A DNA stretch of 64,000 nucleotides from contig NC_135243.1 in the NCBI RefSeq assembly GCF_947623445.1, positions 17,988,479 through 18,052,478 of the forward strand, written 5' to 3'. The stretch is from Clavelina lepadiformis. Lineage: Eukaryota; Chordata; Ascidiacea; Aplousobranchia; Clavelinidae. Each line of letters begins with the position of its first letter. Positions within the stretch are counted from its first letter, which is position 1. The position numbers were made by a program, and so were the translations under genes. Below, piece by piece: positions 1 through 47,652 of the stretch. The notes under the pieces were generated by a model that did no database searches, had not been told where the DNA came from, and saw nothing but the letters and a program-made list of their open reading frames with translations.

Positions 1-3000
1 TATAGCATCTGTTTTAATAACAAGACCACTCCAATATCCAGACCACAATGTTTCAATATAGCTGGCACAAAACATCTAGTTGAACCACGCCTAACACGAA
101 CATAAGTCCATGATGATTACATAAACATCCGCAAAAATTTACGTAGTAATTGTAGAATCATAAGTAACTATTTGCAGATGCGCTGTGAGCACGTATGACT
201 GTCTTTCACCCATTGCTTGTGAGTGTACATGCATGAGTTGGCGCATGGCATGTGCATAAACGTGAATGAAACTAGCGTCAGAACTTCTAATTTTCAACAC
301 TTTTCATTGTGTTCCCAGAAGGAAGATAATGACGGCGCTTAATCCAATGTTAAAAAAATTTTCAATCAAGGAAAGAATCACACTTATTAGGAATAGTGAA
401 ATGTGACCCAGTGCATTAATACAAAAGTTTATGAAAGACTTATTTAGCTAATGTAACAGTAAGTAATTATTTGGGAATTGCATTTATTCAGCATGTTGTA
501 TAAGAACATGTAAGATGCATTGAATGCGTAATATTTTTCATAAATAACAAGGTCATAAAAGCACATGTAATACTCATAAGTCTTAAACAAATTGTGACGT
601 CAACTGCTTCTTTGAGATACACTCATGCCACCAATCTTCTAACACAGCCTTTTGGCAACAATCCGGTAAATGGTTAACTTATTGGGGTTTTACTACTACT
701 GCATCTTAGTTACTTTTAACACAGTTTACTTGCTCATTCAATTTTTAGCCTTGCACATAACCATAGATTGTTTAGAAATTGAAAAGCACTATCATGCATG
801 AAGTCAAGCACATGCTGCAATTTCCAAGTTGTTTACGCTTAGTATGCCAGATAAAGAATAAAATTAGCAACTTACAATAATTGTGCTAAAAGTAAATAGG
901 ATACAGGTAGGGGCAAAAAAAGTTGCTTTTTGTTAAAAGGCACATATGAGAATGAAATCACCAGTTTGTTGACACATTTTGTTACTTTTATCGCTTAGCA
1001 TTGCATTGCAAGTAGTTAAACTTTATAAGGCTTGTTTGTAACATATAACTTGTCAGCACGAAGTTATAACGTTAAAAAGAGTTTTAAGAAAAAAACAAGT
1101 CGGCAGTTTCTCAAGACTTTTTAGTGGCATCTGATGAAAAATACTGCATCAGTGTGTGTTGCTGGTAGCCAATGATGATGGTGAAAAATTATGTGATGTT
1201 AAGTTCAGTAGTTTGATTGGATCAGAGAAAAATGCATTTTCAAGAGCTTCAAATTTAGAGACACCAGCAGTGCTTTCATCCTAAAGTGTTTGAAACTGTT
1301 TTGGAAAAAGATATTGCAATCATTCCATCTAGGCTACTTCCATTTATAAAAAGAACAGAAATCCAGAAAACAAACACAAATGTCAACATTCTTTACTGCT
1401 GAGATAATCACAAAAATAATGACACCAGAAAGTTTAAAAAGCACAACATTGAAATGACTGTGAAGAATAGTGTACTATACCTACGTTTCTCTTTGCACAA
1501 AAAGTTTTTTTGGCGCTAGATAGTCTATAACATATAGAGGATGAAAAATTGCAAATCAACAGTGAAACAAATAGCCTACCAATTAAAATTTTGTGATTTT
1601 ATTAACTATGCTTATATTACTTGCAAGACATAATTTTCTTAGAATATAAGTCGTAGTCCTTCAACGACCTGCAAAAAAATTTCCATTGAACATTTGCAAC
1701 AGCTGCGGTTCTACTCTCTTGTATGCATGTTTCCTGCTAACCCAGAAAAAAAGCTGTTGTTTATTGCAGTATTAGTTAAAAATTTTTCATTATTGTTCGA
1801 AAATTACCAAGTCGAGAATACGTTAATATTTTGGTTGTCTCAACACACTGTTATGTTTGACAATGTTTAACCAATAGGCTATAATGAAGATAATTCAAAG
1901 TGACCATATTGTGTTTATTGATGTCGTAACAATTAGACAGCAACTAGCGACAGTTGTATAGGATTCAACGCCTAACTGATTGTGTAAGCGGTCGAGCATA
2001 AAATTACGGCATTCAAATTACAAACAATACAAACTGAAGTGACTGCTAAGAAAATGTCTGTAACCAGACAAGAATAATTCAGCACGAACAATACAACTGT
2101 CTGGTTGTAAAAAGTGTGCATGACCTTGGAGACTCATAAATAAATCAATAGACCAGAATTCACAATCAACTAAATGCTCAACTTTATGATTTGGTGGTGT
2201 GATCGACCTGTTCAACTAAAAGTTATAACTACAACTCCACCATTCGTCATTAAGTCTAAACAGAGAAATGGTTTGAAAACTAGGAGAATGCTGAGTAAAA
2301 GTTTGAATTTTATGTGCCCAGTAGGGTTGTTCATACTTAGGTAATGTTTAAAAAGTTTAAGTTTAATAGATTAGTCCTATTCTGTACCAACCAAAACCAA
2401 TTTGCAACAAAAAATTTTTGAAATGTTTGACTTTCTACTCCACACATAAGCCTCAAAGTTTTCACCTAAAACAATTGCTAAATTTGGGGATTCCCGCAAA
2501 CGTAAAGTGTTGAAAATCTTAGTTTAAAAGCGCTGTAAGGAAAATGAAATATTTTTGTCATAATATGATATCAGTAAAAATCTGTGATGACATTTTTTCG
2601 TATTTAGTTAAACAAGCAGGATTTTACTTCAAAAAATAATTGCACACTTAATATAGCCAGTATACCAGATTTGGGATTTTCTTTATCGTCAAAGAATACT
2701 AAGTAACTTTTGTGTATCTTTTTTCAATCCCGAGTGTCACTGTAAAAAGCAAGGTATCCTCGGTAGTCCCTATTAAGGAAATTTTGTGCAGTTTTTTCGT
2801 TTAAAATGCGTTTTTAAGGGTCTATAAATTCCTGAAGACAAAGTGGTATTCTTATTGCATATTAATGCACCAACGACCAACTGGCATACAGGGTTAGATT
2901 CATGGTCGGGTTCCTCGGTAGGATTGAATTTATAGTAGTTTGGTATTCCAAAGTTATGTATTACGTGTACATGCATTTCATTTCCCTATGAAATAAAATG

Positions 3001-3556
3001 CAAGCGAATAAAAGCACGATATTTCTACAGTATGAATAGAGTGGCGCCTAATCGAGGGGAATTCCTCAGATTTGTGTCAAAAACTGGCTCCATTGGAAAA
3101 GAAAATATCGTCAAATTAAAAAAACGCAACCCCACCGAAACTTTAACAAGGGAGTGTAACCTCAAAGTGACGTCATAGATAAAAAAAATTCGGATTATTT
3201 CATTGCCCAAAATACTGCCTACTTGTCTAACAATTTGTAAGGGAAAACAAAGCCGATATATGATGATATTTTCATTATTTAAACGTTAATGAACCATTTG
3301 GGTTTGAAGCAATGTAGTTATAAATTTGTAAATTCAAAATACATGTACAGTAATGTTAACTACCAAGTGTTAAGCCAAGTCCAAATTACTGAAGTTGGCA
3401 TGTAAGATTTCAATAAACTTTTCTATATATGTGGGCTAATAAAGTTCATTTATCTGTATTTAAAGGTTGTGCAATGGAGTAATACCAGGAATCTAGGGCT
3501 TGAATGTTTTTTCATGCTACCCTTTAGTGCAAAATTTGCATTAATAATTTTCTATT
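1..3556. other. Upstream region without a recognised gene
   Basis: About 3.5 kb of AT-rich sequence in which I find no exon with a recognisable protein, no tRNA and no clear transposon ends. Short open frames (for example 2018-2215 and 2773-3210, minus strand) have no recognisable composition or flanking splice signals. A TGACGTCA (CRE-type) octamer lies at 3168-3175, about 390 bp upstream of the ABCC start codon. A pyrimidine-rich stretch ending in TTTAG at 3523-3527 looks like a 3' splice acceptor 30 nt before that start. Confidence 0.5.
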
Positions 3557-6500
3557 ATGGAAGGTGGAATTGAAGAAGCGACTGGTGTACAAGATTCTCA
3601 GCAGCTTATTACATCCTGTACATCTGATGATCAAAACTTAGATACTTCAGATGATGTTTCATTCAGATCCAAGTCTTTCCTTGAAAAGTATGGATCATCT
3701 TTAAAAAACCTAATTCCAATTCGACCACGTAAACGAAAAGAGTCTGAACACCCAAGTGATGCTGCAGGACTCTTTTCTACACTTACTTTCTCATGGATGA
3801 CTGTATTAGTTGTAAATGCATTCCGTCACCCACCCACCACAGATGACCTTTGGGAACTCTCGCAATATGACCAAGCTCAAACTAATTATCAACGCTTTGC
3901 AAACCTGTGGAGAGAAGAGCTGAGGTTACATGGTAAAGAAAATGCATCGGTATGGAGAACCATTTTAAAATTTGTTCAAACGCGGCTTATTCTTGCTGTT
4001 ATTTGTTCAGCAATTTTTGCAGCTACTATATTCACAAGCAGTGCTATAATAATGCGTCAGTTACTCCTGCTTTTGTCCAAGGATAGTATGAGTCTTGGGT
4101 TTGGTTTTATCTTGGTTGGAATTTTGCTTGCTGTAGAACTGACACGTGCATTTTTTTTCACAGCAATGTTTGTAATCAACTATCGCACAGCAGTTCGAAC
4201 CAGAGCAGCAGTGCTGTTAATGGTTTTTAAAAAAGTTATAAAAATGTCTCCGGTAATAGGCACAACTACTGTTGGAGAACTTCTCACAGTTTGTTCCAAT
4301 GATGGGGATCGTTTGTTTGAAGCCAATAGATTTGGCGCCTCCATATTTTTGGGCCCAACTTTGTTCATCGCCGGCACTATTTACACTACATTTCTTCTTG
4401 GGCCGATTGGTCTTGTAGGATCATTTGTTTTTATTGCTGTTTTGCCACTGCAAGGAGTTTTGATACGTCTAATGAGCTCTTTACGCTTGAAAGCTCTTGA
4501 ACAAACTGAATTAAGAGTAATGAAAATAAATGAAATTCTTACTTCAGTTAAACTAATCAAAATGTATGCATGGGAATCATCATTCAGTGATGTTGTTGAA
4601 AAAATACGCAGAAAAGAGTTGAGTGCATTGCGTACAGCTGCGTTTCTGCAAAGTATCAATATAAGCATGGCATTTCTAACACCAGTTTTAGCTTCAGTGA
4701 TCATGATAGTGGCATATGTTCTTTCAGGTAATAACTTAAAAGTTGAGGATGCATTTACTGCTATTGCTGTTTTCAATGCTATGGCATATGCTTTGAAAGT
4801 GATGCCCCTGGCTTTGAAAAGTCTGGCAGATGTCAACATTTCAATGCAACGATTTAGAAAGATTCTTTTAATCGATAATTTGGAGGACTATGTCTTATCA
4901 TCCACAGATGATAAAGCAAATGCAATAGAAATGAAAGATGCTGCGTTCATGTGGAAAACGCTCCACCTGAATGAAGGCGAAAGCAAGCACAATATATCTT
5001 CAGAAGAAGGAGATAATGGTGCTTTATTGGAACAGAAACAGCTTCTAGATAACAATCTATCTCTCCAATTAAAAGATATAAGTCTTCGAATTCGTAAAGG
5101 TTCACTCGTTGGTATTTGTGGTGCTGTTGGGTCAGGAAAAAGTTCACTAATAGCTGGTATGATGGGCTATTTGCATTTACAGAAAGGAAGTGTTTCAGTT
5201 TCTGGGACAATTGCATTCGTTGGCCAGCAGGCATGGCTTATGAACGCCACTGTTCGAGAGAATATACTCTTTGGGTTACCTTTTGAAGCAGAAAAATATA
5301 GTGAAGTAGTAATGTCGTGTGACCTGAGCCCTGATTTTGAATCACTGCCCAGCAGAGATTTGACAGAAGTTGGGGAAAGAGGGATCAATCTCAGTGGTGG
5401 ACAAAAGCAAAGGATAAGTCTTGCTCGAGCTTTGTATAGTGATCGAGATATATACTTACTTGACGATCCATTGAGTGCAGTTGACGCTCATGTGGGTAAA
5501 CACATATTTCAGCAAGCGATACTTGGAAAGCTAAAAAAAGGATTAAAAACTGTCCTGTTGGTAACACATCAACTTCAGTATTTGCCGCAATGTGACCAGG
5601 TTTTGATCATGGATAATGGCTCATTAACAGAGACCACTGAACAAGAAATTTCTTTACATAGGTATGACTTTATACATTCACAGGATGAAAAGGAAACTGT
5701 TAAGAAAAAAGAGAATGAAGCCTCAGCTGCCTGCATTAAAACTTGCATCGAAAGCAGTTTGGATGATGAGGAAAAACTTCTTGTCCAAGGTAAATTGATG
5801 ATTGAGGAGGAACGTGGTGACGTGATATCATTAGCAGTATATGCAAAGTATTTCAGGGCAGCAGGAGGTCCTTTGATTGTGTTGTTAATATTTCTCTTCT
5901 TCTGTATCAATGTGGCAGCACAACAGTTCAGTAATTTTTGGCTGTCATACTGGTTGAGCCAAGGATCAGGTGCAGTGTACGCGGAAAATACTATTACAGG
6001 TAACTCGTCGTTTGTAACTACCCCACAAACGGTTGAAGTTAATGCTAGCACCGGCGATCTTAGCAACATGTTAGCTAACCCTAAATTTAACTTTTATCTA
6101 TTGATCTATGCATTGTCAGCCATAGCAATGTTTGCTATAAGCTTTTTGCGTGGGTATGCTTTTGTCTGTATGGTTACTCGTGCTTCTTTGACTCTCCATG
6201 CGTCTTTATTTAAAACTGTTTTACACAGTACAATGACATTCTTTGATACCAATCCAACCGGTCGTATAATAAACAGATTCCACAAAGATATGGATGAACA
6301 GGACGTAGCTATGCCAATGATCATGGAGATGTTTCTCCTTAATTTTACAACTTTGTTGTTCGCCATGGGCCTAATTGCGTTTGTGTTTCCAAAGTTCCTG
6401 ATTGTTGTTGCAGTCGTGTGTCCTGTTTTCTTTGTCATTTACACAGTTTTTAAACCTGCAGCAAGGGAAATGAGGCGCCTCGACTTCCTTACTCGTTCCC

Positions 6501-7654
6501 CTTGGTTCTCCCATATAACTACAGCTATTACAGGTCTGCCAACCATTAGAATCTACCGTCAAACACAGAATTTTGTAAAGCGTTTTTCCACTTTGTTGGA
6601 TACAAATGGCATTCCTTGTTATTTGTTTGCATGTGTTAATCGATGGCTCGCACTTCGCTTAGACCTGCTCATGATTGTCATATGTATCATAACTGCTATA
6701 TTTGTCATCCTCAATCAAGGTTTAATATCTCCTGCATTTGCAGGCCTCGCTATTAGTTCTGCATTTTTAATGAGTGGGATGTTGCAGTTCACAGTAAGGT
6801 TGCTTATTGAAGGAGAAGCACGATTTGTTTGTGTTGACAGGATAAAATACTATATTGAAAATACACCTCAAGAGTCTTCTGATTTTTCTGTGACTCCACA
6901 GCCAACTTGGCCCAACTTTGGCATAATAGAATTCAAAAACGTCAATCTAAGATATCGTAATGGTCTTCCTCTTGCTCTTGAAAATATTACATTCGAAGTT
7001 AAACAGGGTGAAAAAATTGGAATTGTAGGTAGGACTGGTTCAGGAAAATCATCTTTGACAACTACATTATTTCGTTTGGTGGAGTTAGATAGCGGCACAA
7101 TTTTAATTGATGGCATTGACATCAGCATGGTCTCTCAGCGTAGTTTGCGGTCAAAGTTATCGATTATCCCGCAAGACCCAGTGCTTTTTTCTGGAACAGT
7201 TCGTTACAACCTGGATCCATTCAATGAGTTACCGGATGATGACATATGGAATGCGCTTGAGCAAACCTGCTTGAAATCTTTGATTGCTAAGTTCCCTGAC
7301 AAACTTGGAGCACCTGTTGTTGAAAATGGAAACAATTTCTCAGTGGGCGAGCGTCAGCTCATTTGTCTTGCTAGAGCATTGCTTCGAAGAAGCAAAATAT
7401 TGATATTAGATGAAGCTACTGCTGCAGTGGACAATGAAACTGAAGCCATGGTCCATGATATGATAGAGAAGGTTTTTTCTGATTGCACTGTTTTAACAAT
7501 TGCTCATCGTTTGCCCTCAGTTGCCTTTTGTGATCGAGTAATGGTTCTTGATGCGGGAAAACTTGTTGAATTTGATTGTCCAAAGAAATTGATGCAGGTT
7601 GCTGACTCCAAGTTTGCAAAGTTGCTATCCTCATTTCAAGCCAAACATGTTTGA
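3557..7654 (+). CDS. ABCC5-like: ABCC5-like multidrug-resistance ABC transporter, single exon
   Basis: A full-length 1365-aa ABC transporter of subfamily C, in one uninterrupted reading frame. The order is TMD1 (about 75-450), NBD1, TMD2 (about 800-1090), NBD2. NBD1 has Walker A GAVGSGKSS (522-530), signature LSGGQ (612-616) and Walker B ending in Asp636-Asp637, so Asp replaces the catalytic Glu, as usual in ABCC NBD1. NBD2 has Walker A GRTGSGKSS (1158-1166), the variant signature FSVGE (1261-1265) and Walker B Asp1285 with catalytic Glu1286. There is no N-terminal TMD0. Short-type layout and NBD2 wording point to the ABCC5/11/12 group, whose members export organic anions and cyclic nucleotides at the plasma membrane; the substrate here is inferred only. 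Vertebrate ABCC5 has many introns, so an intronless copy is unusual and may be a retrogene. The ATG lies 30 nt after an acceptor-like TTTAG. Confidence 0.93.
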   Translation: MEGGIEEATGVQDSQQLITSCTSDDQNLDTSDDVSFRSKSFLEKYGSSLKNLIPIRPRKRKESEHPSDAAGLFSTLTFSWMTVLVVNAFRHPPTTDDLWELSQYDQAQTNYQRFANLWREELRLHGKENASVWRTILKFVQTRLILAVICSAIFAATIFTSSAIIMRQLLLLLSKDSMSLGFGFILVGILLAVELTRAFFFTAMFVINYRTAVRTRAAVLLMVFKKVIKMSPVIGTTTVGELLTVCSNDGDRLFEANRFGASIFLGPTLFIAGTIYTTFLLGPIGLVGSFVFIAVLPLQGVLIRLMSSLRLKALEQTELRVMKINEILTSVKLIKMYAWESSFSDVVEKIRRKELSALRTAAFLQSINISMAFLTPVLASVIMIVAYVLSGNNLKVEDAFTAIAVFNAMAYALKVMPLALKSLADVNISMQRFRKILLIDNLEDYVLSSTDDKANAIEMKDAAFMWKTLHLNEGESKHNISSEEGDNGALLEQKQLLDNNLSLQLKDISLRIRKGSLVGICGAVGSGKSSLIAGMMGYLHLQKGSVSVSGTIAFVGQQAWLMNATVRENILFGLPFEAEKYSEVVMSCDLSPDFESLPSRDLTEVGERGINLSGGQKQRISLARALYSDRDIYLLDDPLSAVDAHVGKHIFQQAILGKLKKGLKTVLLVTHQLQYLPQCDQVLIMDNGSLTETTEQEISLHRYDFIHSQDEKETVKKKENEASAACIKTCIESSLDDEEKLLVQGKLMIEEERGDVISLAVYAKYFRAAGGPLIVLLIFLFFCINVAAQQFSNFWLSYWLSQGSGAVYAENTITGNSSFVTTPQTVEVNASTGDLSNMLANPKFNFYLLIYALSAIAMFAISFLRGYAFVCMVTRASLTLHASLFKTVLHSTMTFFDTNPTGRIINRFHKDMDEQDVAMPMIMEMFLLNFTTLLFAMGLIAFVFPKFLIVVAVVCPVFFVIYTVFKPAAREMRRLDFLTRSPWFSHITTAITGLPTIRIYRQTQNFVKRFSTLLDTNGIPCYLFACVNRWLALRLDLLMIVICIITAIFVILNQGLISPAFAGLAISSAFLMSGMLQFTVRLLIEGEARFVCVDRIKYYIENTPQESSDFSVTPQPTWPNFGIIEFKNVNLRYRNGLPLALENITFEVKQGEKIGIVGRTGSGKSSLTTTLFRLVELDSGTILIDGIDISMVSQRSLRSKLSIIPQDPVLFSGTVRYNLDPFNELPDDDIWNALEQTCLKSLIAKFPDKLGAPVVENGNNFSVGERQLICLARALLRRSKILILDEATAAVDNETEAMVHDMIEKVFSDCTVLTIAHRLPSVAFCDRVMVLDAGKLVEFDCPKKLMQVADSKFAKLLSSFQAKHV

Positions 7655-9592: not shown

Positions 9593-11167
9593 TTACTCCT
9601 TTGATTCTAAATTAGACAGTTCCAACAAAAATTCCTCATACTTAGAAACCTTTTCTAGCTGTGTTTTATCTGGAGATATTATCATCCCACCATCAATTTT
9701 GCTTTTAAGTTCTTCAATTTGTCGCAATTTTTTTCTCAAAGTTTTGATCCGTTTGGCCACAAAATCCTCGCTACCATCACTCGATGATTGTTGCGATGAC
9801 GCAGATAATTTTGTGTCTGACATTCTTTTGGATAGCTCCGTGATTTCTTTTCCTCCACTTATCAAGTCATCATATTGCTTCTTGATAATCGATTCATTCT
9901 CTTCTTCTCGTTTCTTCTTTCTCTGTTCCTTTCTCTTAAGGTTTTTCTTTGCTCCTTTACTAATTGGAATATCATTGCTTTTGCTTGAAGGACTAGACCC
10001 CAAGCCAGGCACAGGCTGACCAGGTTTGCTTGGAGTTGCTGAAGGAGTATAACCCGGGCAAGCTGGTGCACACTGACGTATCTTTGCTGCAGAGCTTTGG
10101 TACCTACAAGTTCAAAATGAAGATGATAAAACAAGCAATACTGAACGTTTATGCTGTTTAACCAGTCTTTGAACCTTATTACAAATATCAAAAGCTTATA
10201 TTAACTACCACATATACTTCATGGCTTAAATAGATAAAAACAAAATTGTTTTTACTTTTAATGATTTCAAAATTAATGACACCTAGAGGGAGTGGACTCT
10301 GCTTCTTGTAACAAAGTAGAAACTTTTGATTACAACATCAGATAATATACAACATTTTAATGTCTGAACAAGTAGCTTCAAGGTAAACACATATACTAAA
10401 GTTCAACCACGTCTTAACGAAAATCTAACCTTTTTACATCCTCCTCTGGTACATAACCTTCCTTTACCCTTTGTGCTTTTCTCCAGGTTCCATCAGGTCT
10501 TTGAGTAGCAGGAATAAATGCAACACCTTTAAACAGTGCACACTGAAAGCATCCGATGTGTCATTTAATCTTTGTCGGCCATAATAATGTAGATAATTCA
10601 ATAAAAGTTAAGTACACTACTTGCATATTAAAAACGAATCTCTACAAACTTTGTTATTCTCAAGAAACCAATTTTCAGATATTTTATTTTCATCAATCAA
10701 ATCTAAATATGAAATCATGGCAATTCAACAAACATTCAAAATTCAAGTTATATTATTGATTGTAGCCGGTAAAGGAAGTGCAATGGTTGCGAAAATTAAT
10801 TAGTAATTTTGTGAAACTTAAAACAGATTCCTTGTATTCACCAACAAGGTGACATGACTTAACATGCTCATCAGGCACTTTGACTTTAAAGCAAAGTTAG
10901 CAGATATTTAGATTCATATTATAACCTATTTTGGTATGAACATCAAACTCATAGTCATTTTCTCATGCATCGGCATCTTTTTTAAGTTGGCATATTCCTA
11001 GTGTAGAACCAAAATAACAGCACAGTAACTTTTAACAAAATCAATGCAAAATTTATTAAATCATATACAGACTTCTAAAAAGCATGATATTATAGAAATA
11101 TACCACGATCGTCTCTAACTATTCCAGTAGCTTGCGAAACTTTTAGTGTTGTTTGAGAACTTGACAT
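9593..11167 (-). CDS. PYM1: PYM1 (WIBG), exon junction complex disassembly factor
   Basis: Three exons on the minus strand: 11167-11104, 10526-10430 and 10103-9593. They give 672 nt, 223 aa, with all junctions GT-AG and frame-preserving. The N-terminal Mago/Y14-binding segment spans exons 1-2 (about residues 22-52) and contains [14 protein letters not shown] followed by RVKEGYVP, the family hallmark. A basic run with [13 protein letters not shown] (about 105-120) matches the ribosome-binding region. The C-terminal third is helical and charged, with [17 protein letters not shown] binds the Mago-Y14 heterodimer and the 40S subunit and strips exon junction complexes from translated mRNA in the cytoplasm. 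The human protein is 204 aa, so this is full length. The start ATG is 33 nt after an acceptor-like TTTGCAG (11201), so a 5' UTR intron or trans-splice site is possible. RRN3 lies divergently 1.55 kb away. Confidence 0.92.
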
Positions 11168-36588: not shown

Positions 36589-39500
36589 TTATTCCTTTTT
36601 CGCTATATCAGATGGAACAGTCTGCGCCAGGTCTTCCCTTCCAATTTCGATCAAGATCTCTCTTAAGTTGTTGCGAGAGCAAGGCACAGGGCACTGGGTA
36701 CGGATCCAGTGAAAAAGAAGGACCTCAAAGGGCCGCAGCGTCGAATGAGAACGTGCTAGCGAAGCTAACTGCTGGATATCACTGAATCGGAGACCTGGAA
36801 AATAACACTGTGCTGTACTAGTTTGAAATTAGTAAGCTTGAATGAAAACTTTTTATGAACATGTTTCATTGACTGTAGACAATGAACATATATACATATT
36901 AGAGGGCCATGAAAAGTATGAACACTGAGCAGGCCTCTAGTAGCATATGCAAAATTTATTCACCTAGCACTTTATGGAATTTCAAAGAAAACAAAATGTG
37001 CTAATTAGGGAGATCATCCAAATTACCAAGCCTTTCAGCAAATGCTCTCCAGCCTCCGACAGTGACTTCTTCTTTTTCGAGACCAAAAGCTATTCCCAAG
37101 AAGATAACATGCGGCAAATCAAGCCATCTCGAGTTACTGAGATGGGTGCCCAGTAAGACTTCACTGATGGCAACTTCAAACTGTACGATACAATACAAAA
37201 ATATTCACACCAAACTTAAATGATTTTATATGTTGGCAACTGGATTACGATCAAGTTCATCATTATCCATGACCTAGCAAGACATTGCAATGGTGTGCAG
37301 CAACGCATTGGAGGACATAGCTTGATATCAAGCTTCTTCTGACAGTATTACAGACCTTTATGACGCTATATTTGTTTATTTACAAGCATACTGTGATATT
37401 AAACATAATCTGGTGTGAGGGGCAGAAACACTATGTTCGTCAGATTGCTGAGCAACTGCCAGGTATACTGCATTGCTCCTCTGTAAGTAACTTAACAGAG
37501 AATAGTAATTGCCGAATAGAGCTCTACAATTCTTGAGTCATTAAAGATTATATTGTTAAACTAATAAGTTAAGTATATGATAGCATAAACAACATTCTTT
37601 GTATTGTCAGCGAAAAACTATTCACTAAAGGTGCTTTAATCTGTGACAAAAATCTTACATCTGATCCATCAGATTTATTCTCGTAAATCCCTCTTTGTGG
37701 ATCTTCTCCGGGCAAAGGCGGCAAAGTTCCACGCTGAATAGAAGACACCAGTATATCACTGCCATCCGGCCTGAAAAGATTTCATATTTGAAGAGCACAC
37801 CTACTATGTAATGGAATACCATTTGTTAGAGACAAAACTACACCAGAAGATGAGAAACAATACAGGAGTATAATTATTAATTAAGCCATTTGCAGTACCG
37901 TAGCATATCTTCATCATGAAGAGATTGTCTAGATGGCAAGGGTGGGGCTCTGAAGTTGTTACTGGGTTCAGCAACTTGCATGTCAAATCTAGATGGTTCG
38001 GCGGTGGCTGGGAGACTAAATGGCAATGGTTAATCTTCGTAAAAACTAAATTTGAAGCAATTACAGTAAACACTTAGAAGACGAGTTATTAAGAAAATTT
38101 ATCTAAGTTGATGTAATGTTATTTAATAGAGGCAAGAAGAAAGCTTATGCATCAACTACGATTAAACCAAAACATCAGTAATAGGTCAAACTTCACACAA
38201 AAATCATCTTGTTTACTTTGATTTGGGAGGTCGCGGCGGTGGTTGAGATTTGATGTTTATATATGATGGAACTGACAAAGGATGATCATCTCGAGCGGGA
38301 AGTGCTGGAGGCAGATTTTCTGGCTCTTGTGCAATATTCTCATAAGCGACATTTGGGCGTGGTCTCCCAAGGCTTCCAGTACGATTAGAGTCATTATCGG
38401 ATGCATGGACATTAACATAGCAGTGTGGCACATCATTTTCAGTCAATAACGTCGTTATATTCTCTCCAGTTTGATAATCTGAATCGAAACTGATCTGTGT
38501 CGCCAAACCAGGGCCTTTTTTCAAATGATTATCATCAAATCCTGGAGAGGGGAGTTGAGGAGGAGATGAACGAGGTGCTAGCCCATTAGGAGGTGCAAGG
38601 GAAGTGGAGGCTGGTTGAACAAACTCTGGGGCAAAACATCTTGTCTGTTTGCACAGAATAAAAACCAATTAAAGCAGGTTAGTAAAAATTCACAACTAAC
38701 TAATCAATCCAATGTTAAAAATTTAAAATAATTGTAAGCTTCAATATACTAATAAAGTAATAATATATATTTCATTACTCTGAAACGTTAAACGCCTCAA
38801 AAAAGTGAAACCAAAACTGAATAAGAGAAACTTACGGGGGACTGATCAATAAGACTAGGAGGAACACAGACACGTGGATTCGAATCGTGGAAGCAAGGAG
38901 CTCCCTTTCTGGAAGCAGAGGGCTCATCGTTGTGATTGCATCTCCGAGGCGAATTTCTGTCAGTTTCAATGCAGGGTGGGCGAACGTTGTAGTAAGACTG
39001 AACAACTGGTTGTTCAGATTCGTGAGACTTGACGTCTTCATTATCGTGGTCTAATTTTACATAAAGATTTCCAAGACTGTGTCTATTCAGCTTTTTAGCT
39101 TTTTCCATATCTAAAGCTTCTTCTATAAAAATAGGTAAAGATTTGAAAGTTGCTAAATGATGAACAAACTGCTCATCATGACCATCAGATGACAAATAAA
39201 TGTTATACCACGGGGTGTGCCTTTCATGCTTTTCGTTTTTGTTAGCATCGCACGAATACCTTTCGGTGTTTGCTGAACTGGTATTCTCACCAAATTATGG
39301 GAAGGATTCAAATCTGAAATTAGATCAGTGTTGGTAGCTGGTACAAACTCATGATAAAAACTATAAGTTTTAACCTGACATTTTAAAAAACCCAGACTTG
39401 GCATTAATTAGATAACAGTAAGTAAAACTGGTATATATTGATACAAAAAGTCTTCAAAAATTCTCTCCTATGTTAATATTGGTGATGTACTATTTATAAC

Positions 39501-42500
39501 TATTAAAATATTCAGAGCACATTTACCATCGAAACCGGGGAAAATAGTTCCTTTTGGCTTCTTTTCCTCCCCATTTATTATATTATGCTTTTGAAACCTT
39601 TGCAGAAGTTGAGGAGTTCCTTCAACAGTGATGCTCACCTTCATAGAAGTTCCTGTGAAAAGAGAGATGAAAACAGTACAGCATTAAATTTGAGTTGGAT
39701 GATTAAATACAATGAAATCAGCAAATTTATGCCTGAAAACGATTAAAAAATGAAACGCCACAAATGTTTCAATGGTCAATGTGACTTCACACAACATAAA
39801 TTACTTACCCACAACAATTAATAATAGCAATGTGCAAAACGAACTGTCAGTGTGAATAAAGATTCCAAAAAATGTAACTGTTTTCTAGCAGAATTTTGAT
39901 CAGCCACAATAACTGAAGCTGCTACAGTATTGCATAATCACACCAGGATTGATGCAGTTAACCACCAAATGACAAGTTAATGTCAGTAAATCAGTTTTAT
40001 AAAATAAATAATTGGTTGATTTAAAACAAACAAAAACAATTGGATTATGACAGCAACTATTATGTTGTACAAGTGTGAATACATTTAACGCAATTGTCAC
40101 TGCTACGCTGCATAACTGACAAGAAAAAATTGGTCATAATATCCAAATAGTGGTCGTAGTTAACGGAGAATTTTATATGGCAAAATATGGGACCGTACCA
40201 ATATGATCAAATAAAGCAAATGGTCATATTAAGCGGGTTGTACTGTACCAACATTAAACAAAAAGCATTTAATTTATTTTTAACAAAAACCAATGAATTT
40301 ATTCACATTTTACACCAACACCACTTGCTCAATTAATTGCTCTTGAATTTCTTACCAAAGTCATTTGAAACAAGAAAGGTAATATCCGATCGTGTTGCGC
40401 TATCTGTAGTAGAAGCTTGTTCAAAGATTTGACTAAGGTTTCGACATCTCCATGAGCGCAGTACTAAACCTAAAAACAATGTCACAAGTAGAATCTCTCC
40501 ATTTGTCAGTGGTTTATACAGTACTATGCACAATGTTACACAACAAAACAGCACAGGAAAGTAACAGTAATAGCAAAAATCTAGCTGGAAGAAAATCAGA
40601 AAACCTGTGTAATATAAATGGAAACAATGTCTTAGTTGTTTTGAAAAATATACCACTTTTCAAGCAGTCAAAAATGGTGGTTATATATAGCACAAGCAGT
40701 GTAAATTATTTTCACGTTTTTGACTGTCACGATTATTACCACATTTCTGATTGTCATTTATTTCGTTTCTTAAAAACCCTAACGTCTTAACTGGACCAAA
40801 AAACTGGTTTGCAAGGAAGCTAAAAATACATATACTTAACGTTTTTCCCCTGATTACAAGTTACAACTATTGTTGTGGCTAAACAATAAATATCCAGCAG
40901 CGTTTAGAAATAGATCTGAGATAACTTTCAGGTCTGAGTCATCGATATTATGGGGATTTTGTTTAGTTCATTTCCACATTATTGCTCTTAGCTTATGTGG
41001 TATGTCTGCTTAATTTGAATTTAATTTTGTAGTATGTCTGTTATTGGAATTATAAAAGTTTTGTGATTCTATCACTGCTCCTTCTATCAAATGTACAATT
41101 GTACATGTGCTTTATTGTGAGTGTACGTCACTAAATATATCACAACTGGTAATTAATAGAAAACACATATTATAAACTAGTTTTTATTTTAATGTGAAAA
41201 TGATCAAATAGCCCTAAGTGGTCAAGAAAAGTATATATCTTACCAACACTAGCATCATCTTAAGGTTATATATATATATATATATATATATCATCATATA
41301 TTTGTTGCACTAGTCCACTATTAACTTACAGCTTCTATTTTCTCTGGTTTTATCCTCCAAGCTGTGGCATTCTGATATATTTTCAGTGGTGAGATGCAAA
41401 TAGCAGATTTTTTTGGCAAGTTTAGGATCACTTTCAATCACCTTCCATCTGTCGACTAAAAGCCACCGCACCATGCAATCATTGTAATTAGTGTTTAGCA
41501 ATGCGGTAATTGGATTTAAACATTGTTAAATGTAATACAATTAGCTGCATTGGTGGATTGTATGATAACCAGCAGACTAAGGTAACACTATTACATGATT
41601 ACAATAGTAAATGCAGTAGTGCACACCATAATTTCACTTAAATGCGCTTTTGTGGTTAAGTGCTAAGAAAATAAAACCAAATCCAATTCTGTACATACCA
41701 TATCCCATCACGTGTGAAATATATTGATACCAAGTGCCAAGGACATTGTGGTTAACACCAGTAGCAGTCATGACAGCATCTTCAATGATTATATGCTTGT
41801 CTTTCGTAATAATGCAAAGGTATCTGGAAAACAAAAATCTTTTGTGAGGTCGAAGTCTCAGATATATACTGGAGGTATTCTGTTATGAATACAAACAATC
41901 TGCACACATTCGCTGTGACACATTACCTACCGGTATTTCAATTAATCAACAAATGTAGGAAACAAGACGTGAAAACGTTACAATTAAATATTATTTAGTT
42001 AGAATTTGTGCATAGTTCAGCATAACCACATGTTTGGGTGGAGACTTGAGACATTGCATATATAAATATACAGTAGATGGGCATACACATTTCCTTATAA
42101 TTAAAATCTTCAAAATCTTCTGTATTCTGTTTACTAGATACAGCATATAAAGAGAGCACAGTGTATAAGGAAGGTATGTTGTGTACATGACGATAATCAT
42201 CTATATACGTAAATGAAATTGTAAACAATATATCATAGATGATTTACTACATTATAATAAAACTTTTGTTGCAATGACAAACTCTGGGAACGACTTAAAA
42301 TCATGATATGCTGTGGTTGCTGTTACTATTTATAATTATACAAGACTAAAATGTGAAATTTCGCAATATTTACAAAACTAATGTATTCATACTAAACCAA
42401 AACAAACATGGATTTTAAAATATGTAACATGTACTCTTTATTACCGGTACATAAATAGCACATCAGATTTTCGAGATATTTGCATTTTAAATTTTTAGTT

Positions 42501-45500
42501 GTTATGCTAAAATAGCCTATTATAGGGAGAATCTTTTGCCAACCTTTTGCAAAGTAAGTGGTATATTGAGCAGTTAATTCCACATGTAGATAGTGCTTAT
42601 AGCACTGCAGCAGAAAATTTGAAATAAACTGTTTGGTTTTCACAATTGTTGTTAATGGAGACCTTAAGACATGTACCACATGATGCTTCACTTCTTGTTC
42701 CGCTTCCTTCTCATGGAGGTCTTGAATCTGTTTCTGATGAAGTTAATGAAGAAACTTGGACGTGACCGCAGCATTCACAGCAGACGGACCTCTTTGCTAC
42801 TGCCACAACATTAATCACTTGTTTTAAAAATTGGGTGAAGCACATATTGTTGATGAGTGGCGACTTTTCATTGACTCTTCGAAGAGAAGTTTGAAAGCTG
42901 TGTTGTTGCACAATGGAAATGTAAAACAGTCTATTCCTATCGCACATTCTGTTCTTCTGAAAGAATGTTATGAAAGCATCGAAGTCCTTCTGGAAACTAT
43001 TCAGTGCAATGCTTACAAATGGAATACTTGCGGAGACCTCAAAGTCGTTGGCATCTTGATGGGAATGCAGGGAGGATTCACGATACACTGCTGCTTCTTA
43101 TGTTTGTGGAACAGCCGTGCTACCAAAGAGCATTATATCAGAGGAGACTGGCCTGTAAGAGAAGCGCACTTAACTGGAGTGGCTAACATCGGAAACGTTC
43201 CTGTAGTAGGTCTTCAGAAAATTCTCTTGCCACCTCTTCATATCAAGCTGGGTTTGATGAAGAATTTTGTTAAAGCAATGGGAAAGTGCAATTCTAATAG
43301 GTTCGCATTTCTCTGAAAAACATTTTCCTAGCATAAGCCAAGCAAAACTAAAAGAAGGAATCTTCGTGGGTCCTCAAATTAGAGAAGTGCTAAAGGATCC
43401 ACATTTTGAAAAATTATTGTCAAAGTTGGAATTTTGAGCTTGGCAGGCATTCAAGTGGTTGTGTGCTAAATGTTTAGGAAATGTGAAATCACCTTCTTTT
43501 CAGGCAGGAGTTGATGATTTGCTTGCGGCTTACAGAAAAATGGGTTGCCGCATGTCCCTCAAAATGCATTTTCTGCACTCTCACTCTCACTTCTTTCCAG
43601 AAAACCTTGGTGCAGTTAGTGACAAACAAGGTGAATGATTTCACCAGGACATTCAAGCTATGGAAGCTCGTTACCAAGGTTTTTGGAACGAGGGAATGAT
43701 GGGGGACAACTGCTGGATGTTATACCGTGATAACCCCAGTCATGTGTACAAAAGAAAGTCATATGCTAAACATTTTTAAGTACCATGTATCATAGCTGTG
43801 TATTGTTTTTAATGCTTTTTTCTGAAAACACGAATTCGACGATATCTTGAAAATGTGATGAGGTAAAGAAAAACAAAAGATAGATTCGGAATCAGAGCAA
43901 AAAATACATCTCAAATAATATACTTGCGTTCTCGTTTAAGAAAAAAAGTGAAATTTTGTTGACCTGTGTTATTATATAAAATTGAAAATATTAACCCTCA
44001 ATATATGCTTAACAGCATTTACGTATATGATATATATGCGTAACATATTAACTTGCATATGCTAAAGTACAAACTTCTTACTACCTTCGAGTTCCATAAC
44101 GATCAAAGTGATCTCCTTTTTCAAGCCCACAAAAATCATCTCTGGAAAATTGGATTTCAAACTTGAGCTTTGGCTCTTTTGCTTTCATAGCATCTGAACT
44201 TAAGCTGAGCATGTCATGCTTGAATAACTGTATGATGCATCTTGCTGTAAAATGAAAATTAATGCTGTTGGATGTACAATGTACTACCATTAGTTAAAAT
44301 TGCGTGACTGTTTTTTGGGTAGCAGCTGGATAGCTTCATAACTATCAAAACAAATATTACTTTTCAAATTAAAGGATTACATATGTTAGGATTTCCCAAT
44401 CAGGGATGCAAACAGTGTTGGTCCCTACCTTTTACCAACCCACCCTTGTTAAACGACCACGGCAAAAAATTAAACTAATGATACAGGTCCTCAACGATAC
44501 AAAAATGCAACAGTTTAAGAATATGGTGATTAACATTATCAGCGATAGTCCAGTAAGCTTCCAAGAACTTTTTCTGTACCTTGGTTGTTGCTTCAGCACA
44601 CCTCACTCTGTACAAAGAGATCAGTCGCTTATTACTGCCTGTTCTTGCATATGGAGATTTCATTTTCAATTTCACAAAATTGTCTTGATTCAGTTGGTTT
44701 TGACAGCCCAGCATAAATGTTTGTCGCATACAGCAATTTATTGCACCTTCATTTATATGATTTTGCTAAGAGCTACTCAGTTATTAACCACCAAATCCAA
44801 GAATGTGAATGTTCCCCTACCTGGTTGTAAACATGACCTCACCTCACATGGCCTCACCTGGTTGTAAACAAGACAAACTAGTTTTAAGTTTAACATGCTC
44901 GACATCATAGCATACTGCTTAAAGGTGAAGTATAATATATGAGAATTGGGTTTAACATTTTTGATCCTTTACATTTATTTCAGAAATGATATTGTAATGT
45001 GTGGAATGTTTTTCCCATTAACTCATTTTCATTGTTAGTTTTATTGATTGGCTTTTTTGAACCATCTGAGCGCATGTTAATTGTATTAAAACTTTGCATA
45101 AATTAAATCTAACACCAACCTTGAAATTCGCAACAATAATAACTGATTTAACATTTTTAGTATCTCAAATATCTTTCAAGGCCTTTTATGTTTCAATTCA
45201 CCCTTTGTCAACGGAAACCTCTGATGCAGATTGAACAAAAACAAAGTTGAACCACTCATTTGCAACTTCCAAATTTCTACTTAAAAGTGTCTTCAAATGA
45301 AAAATGTTTGATAGCAATTCGACATGTCGGATATATGATATATATTAGGGTTGCCATACGTCCGGATTTCCCCGGACATGTCCGCAATTTTAGTGTTCAA
45401 ACTGCGTCCGGGGGGAAATGCTAAAATATGCTTAAATGTCCGGAATTTTTTTAAATTGTTTGTTGCGTTACGGGTAATAATTTGATTGTTACGTCATAAA

Positions 45501-47652
45501 CAACAATACAGCGCTCTATTTAGGATACAATGATACATGGATGAGTGGAGCTGGGCTAGTAGCTGAAGGCCTTATATCTTAGTCGATATTGCAAAATTTA
45601 GAACATGTCTGAAACGATAAGAGCGTATATTCGCTGAAGAAAATTATAAAGCAGTAGAAAAATAGCGCAACAAGAAGTCTGTTGCAGACCCAATTCACAA
45701 GGTACAATAGCCTAGTGAATTCACGACATTTTGTTGAAAAATCCACTCCGGTATACAATGGATAGGCAAAGCATTGCTAGTGTGACGTCATATTGACAGA
45801 CAATGTGTTAATACCTCATTCTAAAAACCGCTAGTGGGCACTAAAGAGTGTCCGGATTTTAGGCCACGAAAATATGGTAACCCTAATATATATACGGTAC
45901 CGGTTATTTGTGTCTTATATGGTTGAATAAATCAAAACCTTGTTTTTAATTTTTATTATGAGAAATCGGCAAAAACGACTTGAAAAACTTTCTCGTGTAC
46001 CGCTAGTTCGCACGATATACATGTTAAAGCATTTCACACTATCTGACGACGGTTTGCAACCCAGATTTGGGAAGTCCTGGCCTATATTACAGAAGGACTA
46101 AATTTTGATAAGTCAACCGGCAGGTTTTAAGAACAAAAACTAACCAGAGTTGTTGTTCATTTCCACTCTCAGTTCTCCCCATCTCTGAAATCACAAAAGA
46201 TATTTTGATTAATACCACTTCTGAAAGCAAATTATTGGCATCATATACTTATATGCCAAAGGGCTTGTTGTAAGTAGGCTATATTGTAAACATAACATTA
46301 ATAATAGTCAGCATTAACAACATGTATTTACAAGAACGAATTTCAAAAATGCCATTTGCACAAATGAAATATACATATACCATACATAAGATATCATACT
46401 ACTACTAGCCTAAATAATCAAGTCTGCATACAATGAGCAAAGAAAAGTTGACAGTGACTTATTATTCACATCTGTTGTCAGCTGAAACTTTGCCTGCATT
46501 TTACCACAACAGACTGTGTTGATAAAGATGGCATAAATGCAAAATATTAGGATAATAATAAGCGTTTCTAAAAAAAATAGTGATTCTGATGATTGACGGC
46601 ACAATTGCAGAAGTAGGTCAAATTAGTATATTATAAATATTATTATGTAGTTAGTGTAGTGGTTTTTTATAATACTCTAAACTTAACCAAGCTGTGTTTA
46701 GAAAAAAATGTCGCTAAGGTCATCTAAAAGAATAAAAATAAATTTGCATATCATCGCTGCAAACTGAAAAATCATATTTAGAAAAATAGTTTAGTCAACA
46801 AAGCAACAGGAATGAAAACCTCACTTAGCACATATTTTATCCCTTAAGTAGGTTCATGTTGATTTCATTCCATTTCTTTTTTGTCAGGTAGATTTGAAGC
46901 CAGTGTATATAAAACAATTCCCATGAATTTCTACAATATCCTAAATTGGGAAACTGTAGCATAAGTGGGTGGCACAAAATGTATGATTTTATCCTGAAGT
47001 CAAAACAATTTTTCATGGTATACATAAGAAAAGAATAGAATGCCATATGAGCAGATGGAAAATTTAAAAGTAACAGTTAGTCCTTAAAAGTACCCCTCTC
47101 TTAAAATTTCTTAACGGTAGCCAAAGTCAAACCTTAAAAAAACACTGGTTTTACACATTGACACTCAAATAAAAATTAAGGATATTGTTTTACAATATAA
47201 CATGTTAAAATTTTATCACACTGTTGATGATTTGCTGAAGTTGGCGCCTATAAGGCTGTTTATTCATTTCTTTGTTGGGCCTAGTGCAGAAGTGCACAAC
47301 CAGATGACGTCACAATTTGAGTAGCTGGGGTCTCGTACACAAAGGCATCCTGTGGTTGTGCACTTCTGCACTAAACCATCTTTGTATGTATAACTTATAG
47401 TATATATCAATCTGTATGTAATCAGACTGTTGTATTGTATATTATGACAAATTGTTTATCAAAATCTACATGACCAAAGCCAGTTAATAAAATTTAATTT
47501 ACATAAATACATATACATCATAAATCTATAAGACATACCCTTTTTCTTTTGTAACCTTTGTATCTATGCATAACACATCCACGTAAAACATCTTCAACTG
47601 TGTTATTGCATGATGACATTGTACTTGGCATTGTTGCGTGTTGGCCATCCAT
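36589..47652 (-). CDS. Adaptor with PH-like, PTB-like, multi-YxN and C-terminal death domains
   Basis: Thirteen exons on the minus strand: 47652-47539, 46184-46145, 44244-44085, 41823-41699, 41455-41330, 40469-40356, 39652-39527, 39272-38836, 38644-38217, 38015-37899, 37770-37659, 37180-37027 and 36794-36589. They give 2259 nt, 752 aa, all in frame, with an in-frame TAA six codons before the ATG. Residues about 20-146 look like a PH domain: basic KGYKRKRRW between strands 1 and 2, then a terminal helix with GTWYQYISHVMG. Residues about 149-250 resemble an IRS/DOK-type PTB: YLHLTTENIS, LRSWRCRNL, then helix TPQLLQRFQKH. The linker carries five Y-x-N motifs (YYNV 362, YVNV 490, YENI 515, YINI 542, YENK 625), the GRB2 SH2 consensus, plus PPALPAR, PPPRPP and PPLPSR SH3-type motifs. 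The C terminus (about 650-745) is a death domain: GWRAFAERLGLRFSDI, LLFHWIRTQ, LREILIEIGREDLAQ. I know no family with this layout. A cytoplasmic or membrane-recruited signalling scaffold is inferred. Introns 1-3 and 6 contain mobile-element remains. Confidence 0.82.
40130..40240 (-). repeat. Dispersed repeat, copy 2 (inverted relative to 32.2 kb)
   Basis: Reverse complement of the repeat at 32202-32306, with about 80-85% match by eye across roughly 105 bp. It lies in intron 6 of the adaptor gene. Confidence 0.65.
41267..41291. repeat. (TA)n microsatellite
   Basis: An uninterrupted run of about 12 TA units in intron 5 of the adaptor gene, followed by TCATCATATA. Confidence 0.9.
42650..43780 (+). 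pseudogene. Decayed transposon-type gene inside adaptor intron 3
   Basis: The plus strand carries a readable but broken protein in a minus-strand host gene. Recognisable blocks in order are DEWRLFIDSSKRSLKAVLLH from 42858, a GDLK..G.LMGMQGGF block with C.LCLW (about 43030-43110), PPLHIKLGLMKNFVKAMGK (43230-43290), FVGPQIREVL, AYRKMGCRMSLKMHFL, DKQGE.FHQD and YQGFWNEGMMGDNCW. I recall this block order from a multicopy family of uncharacterised proteins in invertebrate genomes, presumed mobile-element encoded; its biochemical role is unknown to me. Lesions seen: TAA near 42820, a frameshift around 43310, TGA near 43436 and TGA near 43636. The minus-strand open frames here (42392-43088, 43489-43677) are shadows. 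No terminal repeats were found. Confidence 0.6.
45346..45885. mobile_element. hAT-type MITE with CCGGAC-rich termini, adaptor intron 2
   Basis: A 540-bp element. Its left end is TAGGGTTGCCATA and the inverted right end is TAGGGTTACCATA, each followed inside by TCCGGA/GTCCGG words. The 8 bases outside each end both read ATATATAT (45338-45345 and 45886-45893), but that is simple sequence and weak evidence on its own. It has no coding capacity. Confidence 0.75.
47282..47373. mobile_element. 92-bp element with perfect 21-bp inverted repeats
   Basis: TAGTGCAGAAGTGCACAACCA at the left is perfectly repeated in inverse at the right (TGGTTGTGCACTTCTGCACTA), around a 50-bp centre that includes a TGACGTCA octamer. 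It lies in adaptor intron 1. It is either a minimal MITE or a foldback element; no target duplication is evident. CTAGTGCAGAAG recurs at 32897. Confidence 0.7.

What the first reader, a model, noticed from the sequence alone, without database searches (positions are those of the whole stretch)
36589..47652. Adaptor joining a DOK/IRS-like front (PH-PTB) to a C-terminal death domain
Thirteen exons join in frame to 752 aa with a PH-like fold, a PTB-like fold, a tyrosine/proline-rich linker and a C-terminal death domain (GWRAFAERLG, LLFHWIRTQ, LREILIEIGREDL). DOK, IRS and FRS adaptors end in disordered docking tails. Death-domain adaptors (FADD, CRADD, MYD88 class) lack PH/PTB modules. I know no protein with this combination. 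It could couple receptor tyrosine kinase or integrin input to death-fold assemblies. The exon frames are seen directly; the PH and PTB calls are inferences from pattern, the death-domain call is stronger.
Basis: partly seen in the sequence, partly recalled or inferred. Interest (0 to 1): 0.88.

Follow-up and report, generated by a model that had tools for sequence, protein, structure and literature searches.

The report
DOK7-like adaptor with a death domain
A sea-squirt gene appears to join a membrane and receptor docking front resembling the muscle-synapse adaptor DOK7 to a tail of the kind that builds cell-death signalling complexes, a possible natural link from growth-receptor input to death machinery that so far is known only from sequence, not from experiment.

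Summary
On the minus strand 14 exons (not 13), 47652-36589, splice through GT-AG introns into one 737-aa frame (not 752). The C-terminus matches Pfam Death (aa 660-728, 26.5 bits, cut-off 22.6), nearest PIDD. Pfam lists no PH or PTB, but the front aligns with DOK7 PH-PTB: score 107, shuffles 41.5±6.8, 0 of 1000 reach it; BLASTP E 6e-4. PH is well supported; the PTB alone is not (125 of 500 shuffles), and two of three recalled phosphotyrosine-pocket arginines are replaced. The linker has five Y-x-N motifs, 0.53 expected, the recalled GRB2-SH2 consensus. The death-domain exons contain no methionine. By eye the same genome encodes FADD-, RAIDD- and caspase-8-like frames. No transcript or structure prediction was available. 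Six literature searches found no precedent. Most likely a DOK7-derived adaptor that presents a death domain at a receptor; partner and outcome are inferred.

The parts
47539..47652 (-). exon 1 (aa 1-38): start codon and first part of PH with polybasic stretch HRYKGYKRKR
   Evidence: DOK7 alignment begins at aa 33
   Evidence: carries the RW..LR match with DOK7
44085..44244 (-). exon 3 (aa 52-104), PH, holds the DOK7 motif CGLE at aa 90-93
41699..41823 (-). exon 4 (aa 105-146), end of PH including W136
41330..41455 (-). exon 5 (aa 147-188), start of PTB-like region (VDRWKV against DOK7 VHRFHV)
40356..40469 (-). exon 6 (aa 189-226), PTB-like region; LRSWR in place of DOK7 LRRYG
39527..39652 (-). 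exon 7 (aa 227-268), end of PTB-like region
   Evidence: PTB half not significant alone
39209..39313 (-). exon 8 (aa 269-303), start of linker; the phase-1 intron before it splits an Asp codon, as at human DOK7 D218
38836..39122 (-). exon 9 (aa 304-399), linker with Y324 and YYNV (Y347)
38217..38644 (-). exon 10 (aa 400-541), linker with YVNV (475), YENI (500), YINI (527), PALPAR and PPRPPK; reading on into intron 10 meets TAA at once (possible form without death domain)
37899..38015 (-). exon 11 (aa 542-580), linker with PPLPSR; last methionine of the protein (M579)
37659..37770 (-). exon 12 (aa 581-618), linker with YENK (Y610)
37027..37180 (-). exon 13 (aa 619-669), beginning of death domain (GWRAFAERL); Pfam match starts only at aa 660, the stretch before it is helix 1 by eye
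36589..36794 (-). exon 14 (aa 670-737) and stop, most of the death domain

Best explanation
A tunicate adaptor derived from the DOK7 branch of the DOK family. Its PH domain, and probably a DOK7-type PTB fold next to it, places it on membrane at a receptor, as a dimer if it behaves like DOK7. Tyrosines in its linker are phosphorylated and, through five Y-x-N sites, recruit GRB2-type SH2 adaptors, with proline motifs offering SH3 contacts. Clustering brings the C-terminal PIDD-like death domains together so that they bind death-domain adaptors (a RAIDD/CRADD-like and a FADD-like frame exist in the same genome) and nucleate a caspase-activating or other death-fold complex. Shown by sequence: gene model, DOK7-like front, Y-x-N cluster, death domain, presence of possible partners. 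Inferred: single transcript through exons 12-14, phosphorylation, membrane recruitment, death-domain partner, outcome. My estimates: architecture real 0.85; partner RAIDD- or FADD-like 0.4; outcome cell death rather than another signal 0.25.
For: One open frame over 14 exons. Front against DOK7 chain 3ml4: BLOSUM62 local score 70 (shuffles 29.9±4.3), BLOSUM45 107 (41.5±6.8), 0 of 1000 in each; 0 of 42 stop-free frames of this genome used as decoys reach 107 (maximum 54) and the reversed front scores 40; BLASTP E 6e-4, 36 of 142 identical. The shared CGLE motif includes the position of human G64, changed in a myasthenia patient. The intron behind the PTB region is phase 1 within an Asp codon in both (one intron compared). 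Death domain: Pfam 26.5 bits, cut-off 22.6; PIDD local score 90, 0 of 500 shuffles. Y-x-N 5 against 0.53 expected, 8 of 100000 shuffles; PxxPx[RK] 3 against 0.72, 3369 of 100000 (both motifs chosen after looking at the linker). No methionine in exons 13-14. In the same genome: a frame with Pfam DED and, by eye, a death domain (L030); two Pfam DEDs and, by eye, a caspase (L031); a Pfam CARD and a Pfam death-domain stretch 0.7 kb apart on one strand (L037); a Pfam CARD and, by eye, a caspase (L033).
Against: No PH or PTB hit in Pfam at E up to 10 (HMMER's filters drop most matches above about 0.1) and none in the PDB sequence search. The front gives nothing against IRS1, DOK2 PH, DOK5 PTB or FRS3 PTB; by the same test DOK7 itself is null to DOK2 PH (171 of 1000) and only modest to IRS1 (8 of 1000), so this says little, but DOK7 PTB finds DOK5 PTB strongly (140, 0 of 1000) and the window does not. 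PTB half alone: 125 of 500 (BLOSUM45) and 122 of 500 (BLOSUM62); hhalign 35 of 300, and two linker segments scored higher. Of the arginines I recall as the DOK7 phosphotyrosine pocket (R158, R159, R174), R158 aligns with R193, R159 with S194, R174 with D211 or T209. DOK7 was picked after a resemblance was seen by eye. No transcript evidence; exon 14 codon usage is weak. No other animal genome was searched (none is among the collections), and no paralog was found, so conservation of the fusion is unknown. No structure prediction was obtained.
Confidence: 0.55

Rival explanations
1. Same protein, but the death domain is a generic self-association or scaffold module: it polymerises or binds a non-apoptotic partner (NF-kB-type or Toll-type signalling, or cytoskeletal scaffolding), and the protein strengthens receptor clustering in the way DOK7 does at synapses.
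For: DOK7-like front; death domains are not restricted to death signalling (established knowledge, for example MyD88, ankyrins, NF-kB p100); three of eight other death-domain loci of this genome also exceed all 500 shuffles with it, L005, L004 and L002.
Against: The nearest solved death domain is PIDD, a caspase-2 platform (role recalled), and RAIDD- and FADD-like frames are present.
Confidence: 0.3
2. Two genes: a DOK7-like adaptor that ends within exon 10, 11 or 12 and a separate death-domain gene below 37.2 kb.
For: Intron 10 retention gives an immediate stop; intron 12 holds AATAAA/ATTAAA sites at 37640 and 37380, so a shorter adaptor transcript is possible. The 12-13 join has no support from homology.
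Against: Exons 13-14 contain no methionine, and none of the 12 ATG-started frames in the 478-nt gap runs directly into exon 13 (splicing out of those frames was not tested). Exon 12 joins exon 13 in frame with GT-AG sites. A separate gene would need an unrecognised upstream coding exon.
Confidence: 0.1
3. Not exclusive of the above: the PTB-like segment has lost phosphotyrosine binding and the protein acts as a PH-anchored, GRB2-linked death-domain scaffold; receptor choice comes from another contact.
For: Two of three recalled pocket arginines replaced; second half of the PTB not recognisable.
Against: The alignment in that half is uncertain; PTB folds can bind unphosphorylated peptides (established for talin and others).
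Confidence: 0.4

Closest known systems
DOK7 (PH-PTB adaptor of the receptor kinase MuSK)
   Same: PH followed at once by a PTB-like region; 25-27% identity; CGLE motif; phase-1 intron in an Asp codon behind the PTB
   Different: C-terminal death domain; no Y-x-x-P (CRK-type) site but five Y-x-N; two of three recalled pocket arginines replaced
FRS2, GAB and LAT docking proteins
   Same: tail with clustered Y-x-N GRB2-type sites and proline motifs (recalled for these families)
   Different: different N-termini and no death domain (recalled)
PIDD death domain
   Same: nearest solved death domain by sequence
   Different: PIDD carries LRR and autoprocessing ZU5 modules (recalled); none detected here
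FADD and CRADD/RAIDD adaptors
   Same: cytosolic adaptor with a C-terminal death domain (recalled)
   Different: they have DED or CARD in place of PH/PTB, and no docking linker (recalled)
Artificial DED-PTB and DED-SH2 chimeras that redirect tyrosine-kinase signals to apoptosis (mentioned in PMC2575513, passages seen)
   Same: joins a phosphotyrosine-type module to a death-fold module in one adaptor
   Different: engineered; DED rather than death domain

Membership tests
DOK family / DOK7 | N-terminal PH domain | tested here: met
   PH half against DOK7 PH: BLOSUM45 80 against 34, 0 of 500 shuffles; BLOSUM62 54 against 25, 1 of 500. Pfam PH not reached
DOK family / DOK7 | PTB domain of IRS type after the PH | tested here: inconclusive
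   alignment continues into it, but alone 125 and 122 of 500 shuffles, hhalign 35 of 300, no Pfam hit
DOK family / DOK7 | phosphotyrosine-pocket arginines (R158, R159, R174; recalled) | tested here: not met
   R193, S194, and D211 or T209: one of three kept, as far as the alignment can be trusted
DOK family / DOK7 | Y-x-x-P CRK sites in the tail (DOK7; role recalled, Dok7 Y406 peptide mentioned in PMC5043372, passages) | tested here: not met
   0 YxxP in 737 aa
DOK family / DOK7 | no folded domain in the tail (recalled) | tested here: not met
   death domain at the C-terminus
Death-domain superfamily | PF00531 match over gathering score | tested here: met
   26.5 bits in the whole protein, 28.8 alone, cut-off 22.6; profile 16-81 of 86
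Death-domain superfamily | six-helix fold | not tested
GRB2-docking adaptors | clustered Y-x-N sites | tested here: met
   5 of 8 linker tyrosines; 8 of 100000 shuffles reach 5
GRB2-docking adaptors | phosphorylation and GRB2 binding | not testable with these tools
   needs biochemistry
PIDD | LRR and S68/ZU5 autoprocessing modules (recalled) | tested here: not met
   only Death found in the protein at E up to 10

The most novel reading that the evidence does not exclude
A natural receptor-tyrosine-kinase-to-death-fold switch: a DOK7-derived adaptor in tunicates that, when a kinase clusters and phosphorylates it, presents PIDD-like death domains and directly seeds a PIDDosome- or DISC-like complex, with GRB2 recruited to the same scaffold so that survival and death outputs compete on one molecule.
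Probability: 0.2. Interest if true: 0.85.

Novelty: new variant of a known kind. Interest (0 to 1): 0.62.

Why it matters
Growth-receptor adaptors and death-domain adaptors are separate families in the animals usually studied (established knowledge). PMC2575513 mentions engineered fusions of this kind that turn kinase signals into apoptosis (passage seen); here a chordate genome seems to carry one already. It would give a direct physical link between receptor-kinase input and death-fold assemblies, and it bears on what DOK7-like proteins do outside vertebrates, which PMC12445529 says remains to be fully investigated in non-vertebrate chordates (passage seen).

Tried and rejected
Tried without result: Pfam and PDB sequence search for PH/PTB; hhalign against an IRS/DOK/FRS PTB profile; a paralog in the genome (13 matches, all to the gene itself; only the best candidates are scored); DOK7 as a genome query (no candidates; the answer itself says an empty result shows nothing); PIDD autoprocessing family in the genome (best 22 bits, cut-off 31.9); literature for the same architecture and for human DOK7 splice positions (none listed); structure prediction of exon 14 (eight calls, all busy). 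tRNA, Rfam and bacterial promoter scans of the window or part of it gave nothing of use.

Considered and rejected: a front nearer to IRS1, DOK2, DOK5 or FRS3 than to DOK7; GAREM-type CABIT protein (by recall; no CABIT hit); pseudogene (no stop or frameshift in 737 codons); assembly gap (no N in the window). A hand alignment of the PTB second half to the FEGGTRC hairpin was dropped because it scored 3 against 36 for the computed alignment.
Full report
What was checked. The finding describes a minus-strand gene between 47652 and 36589. I rebuilt it from splice signals: 14 exons, 13 GT-AG introns, one frame from ATG 47652 to the stop at 36589, 737 aa. The window has no N. Codon usage trained on the long ABC-transporter ORF in the same window favours the proposed frame over the five others in 11 of 14 exons; exons 2, 5 and 14 do not.

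Organism. The genome behind the window has 209,060,895 bases in 95 contigs and the window lies on C4. The contig lengths listed with my loci (C1 28.78, C2 26.53, C3 25.73, C4 25.07, C5 24.62, C6 20.77, C8 19.51 Mb) agree within 0.01 Mb with chromosomes 1-6 and 8 of Clavelina lepadiformis in Table 2 of PMC10884593 (28.79, 26.54, 25.74, 25.07, 24.62, 20.77, 19.51; passages seen) and not with Ascidia mentula (PMC11109543, passages seen). The totals differ a little (the paper gives 210.1 Mb in 102 scaffolds), so this may be another version of the assembly. C7 and C9 were not compared.

Death domain. Pfam reports one family in the whole protein, Death PF00531, aa 660-728, profile positions 16-81 of 86, 26.5 bits against a gathering score of 22.6, 28.8 bits for aa 619-737 alone. 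The match crosses the exon 13-14 join; the first 41 residues of exon 13 lie outside it and are helix 1 only by eye. In the PDB the best sequence matches are two PIDD death-domain entries at E 0.18 and 0.31, not significant by themselves; the five other sequences under E 10 are not death domains by name. Local alignment to PIDD gives 90 with 0 of 500 shuffles reaching it; of eight death-domain loci of this genome, L005, L004 and L002 also exceed all 500 shuffles, the other five do not.

Front. Neither Pfam nor a PDB sequence search finds PH or PTB at E up to 10. The Pfam IRS model finds eight stretches elsewhere in the genome and none here. Of these, L010 matches IRS1 in the PDB (E 2.3e-19) and the joined L015/L016 fragments match DOK1 (E 1.9e-17); talin (L009, L013) and FRS/DOK-type (L011, L012) are by eye, and L014 is not assigned. 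However, aa 1-275 compared with the solved PH-PTB of DOK7 (3ml4; letters printed) give BLOSUM62 70 (shuffles 29.9±4.3) and BLOSUM45 107 (41.2±6.5; 41.5±6.8), 0 of 1000 shuffles in each case. BLASTP gives E 6e-4, 36 of 142 residues identical. None of 42 stop-free frames from this genome reaches 107 (maximum 54), and the reversed front scores 40. IRS1, DOK2 PH, DOK5 PTB and FRS3 PTB give nothing. That null is not strong evidence of specificity: by the same test DOK7 itself is null to DOK2 PH (171 of 1000) and modest to IRS1 (8 of 1000), although its PTB finds that of DOK5 strongly (0 of 1000), which the window does not. Split in two, the PH half is strong (BLOSUM45 80 against 34, 0 of 500; BLOSUM62 54 against 25, 1 of 500) and the PTB half is not significant alone (125 and 122 of 500). 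Crossed halves, as controls, gave 45 to 147 of 500.

Details that tie it to DOK7. The motif CGLE (window 90-93) aligns with DOK7 63-66; G64 is the residue changed in a patient with congenital myasthenia (PMC10117378, abstract and passages). Human DOK7 exon 6 starts at c.653, the second base of codon D218, behind the PTB (same passages); the window's intron 7 also splits an Asp codon (269) after its first base behind the PTB-like region. Only this one intron could be compared from a source. The DOK7 alignment crosses the joins of exons 1-5 (to exon 6 with BLOSUM45), including a 2.26-kb intron that holds a repeat, so it also supports the gene model there.

PTB pocket. DOK7 LRRYG aligns with LRSWR (R158 to R193, R159 to S194), and R174 aligns with D211 or T209. 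That these three arginines hold phosphotyrosine in DOK7 is recalled, not tested. The PTB-like domain may therefore bind an unphosphorylated ligand or none.

Linker. Of eight tyrosines between aa 276 and 618, five are Y-x-N: YYNV 347, YVNV 475, YENI 500, YINI 527, YENK 610. Shuffling the linker gives a mean of 0.53, and 8 of 100000 shuffles reach five. PxxPx[RK] occurs three times against 0.72 (3369 of 100000). Both motifs were chosen after looking at the linker. Y-x-N is the recalled GRB2-SH2 consensus. There is no Y-x-x-P, the CRK-type motif of DOK7.

One gene or two. The last methionine is M579 in exon 11; exons 13-14 have none, and none of the 12 ATG-started frames in the 478-nt gap before exon 13 runs directly into it (I did not test splicing out of those frames). 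The death-domain exons therefore need upstream coding sequence, and exon 12 supplies it in frame. Against this, intron 10 retention would stop the frame at once, AATAAA/ATTAAA sites exist in intron 12, and the joins of exons 6 to 13 have no support from homology. No reads were available to settle this.

Possible partners. The genome has a frame with a Pfam DED and, by eye, a death domain (L030, FADD-like), a frame with two Pfam DEDs and, by eye, a caspase domain (L031), a Pfam CARD stretch and a Pfam death-domain stretch 0.7 kb apart on one strand (L037, RAIDD/CRADD-like; the join between them was not modelled) and a frame with a Pfam CARD and, by eye, a caspase (L033). A PIDD autoprocessing module was not found above cut-off, which shows little.

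Mechanism. Most likely the protein is recruited to membrane at a receptor by its front, is phosphorylated, recruits GRB2-type adaptors, and on clustering presents death domains to a death-domain adaptor. PMC10117378 describes the DOK7 PH-PTB crystal structure as a dimer (passage), which is why I expect clustering. Only the anatomy is shown; the rest is inference. Whether the outcome is cell death or another death-fold signal cannot be told.

Novelty. No paper with this architecture came up in the searches named; the library is open-access only, and of the papers listed I looked at passages of PMC2575513, PMC2246300 and PMC2394772, the others only as listings. PMC2575513 describes novel death-fold combinations in amphioxus and mentions artificial DED-PTB/SH2 adaptors; the passages seen name no natural PH-PTB-death protein. 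I rate it a new variant of a known kind: known modules, apparently new order.

Noticed in passing
window 42700-43500: Intron 3 holds a dispersed repeat with a 162-aa open frame (42828-43316) on the + strand; 56 matches in the genome including itself (a lower bound), about thirty of them long stretches at 85-94% identity, so probably a transposable element.
   Followed up: partly
window 3548-7654 (+): Single open frame of 1368 aa (stop to stop) of an ABC transporter with two membrane and two ATPase regions by Pfam.
   Followed up: partly
window 9593-10111 (-): Open frame that looks like the C-terminus of a PYM1/WIBG homologue (by recall; no Pfam hit).
   Followed up: no
L037 4071-5177 (G000 C5:8510070-8511176): CARD stretch followed by a death-domain stretch on one strand: likely RAIDD/CRADD homologue in this tunicate.
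   Followed up: partly
L030 and L031: FADD-like (DED plus, by eye, death domain) and caspase-8-like (two DEDs plus, by eye, caspase) open frames.
   Followed up: partly
L003, L006, L007: Three short death-domain exons of similar sequence by eye (for example NKDWNQFARLKLGL), two on C3 about 5.6 kb apart: perhaps a small family.
   Followed up: no
window 45300-45480: Stretch rich in TCCGGAC-type words in intron 2 that looks like a mobile-element end (by eye).
   Followed up: no
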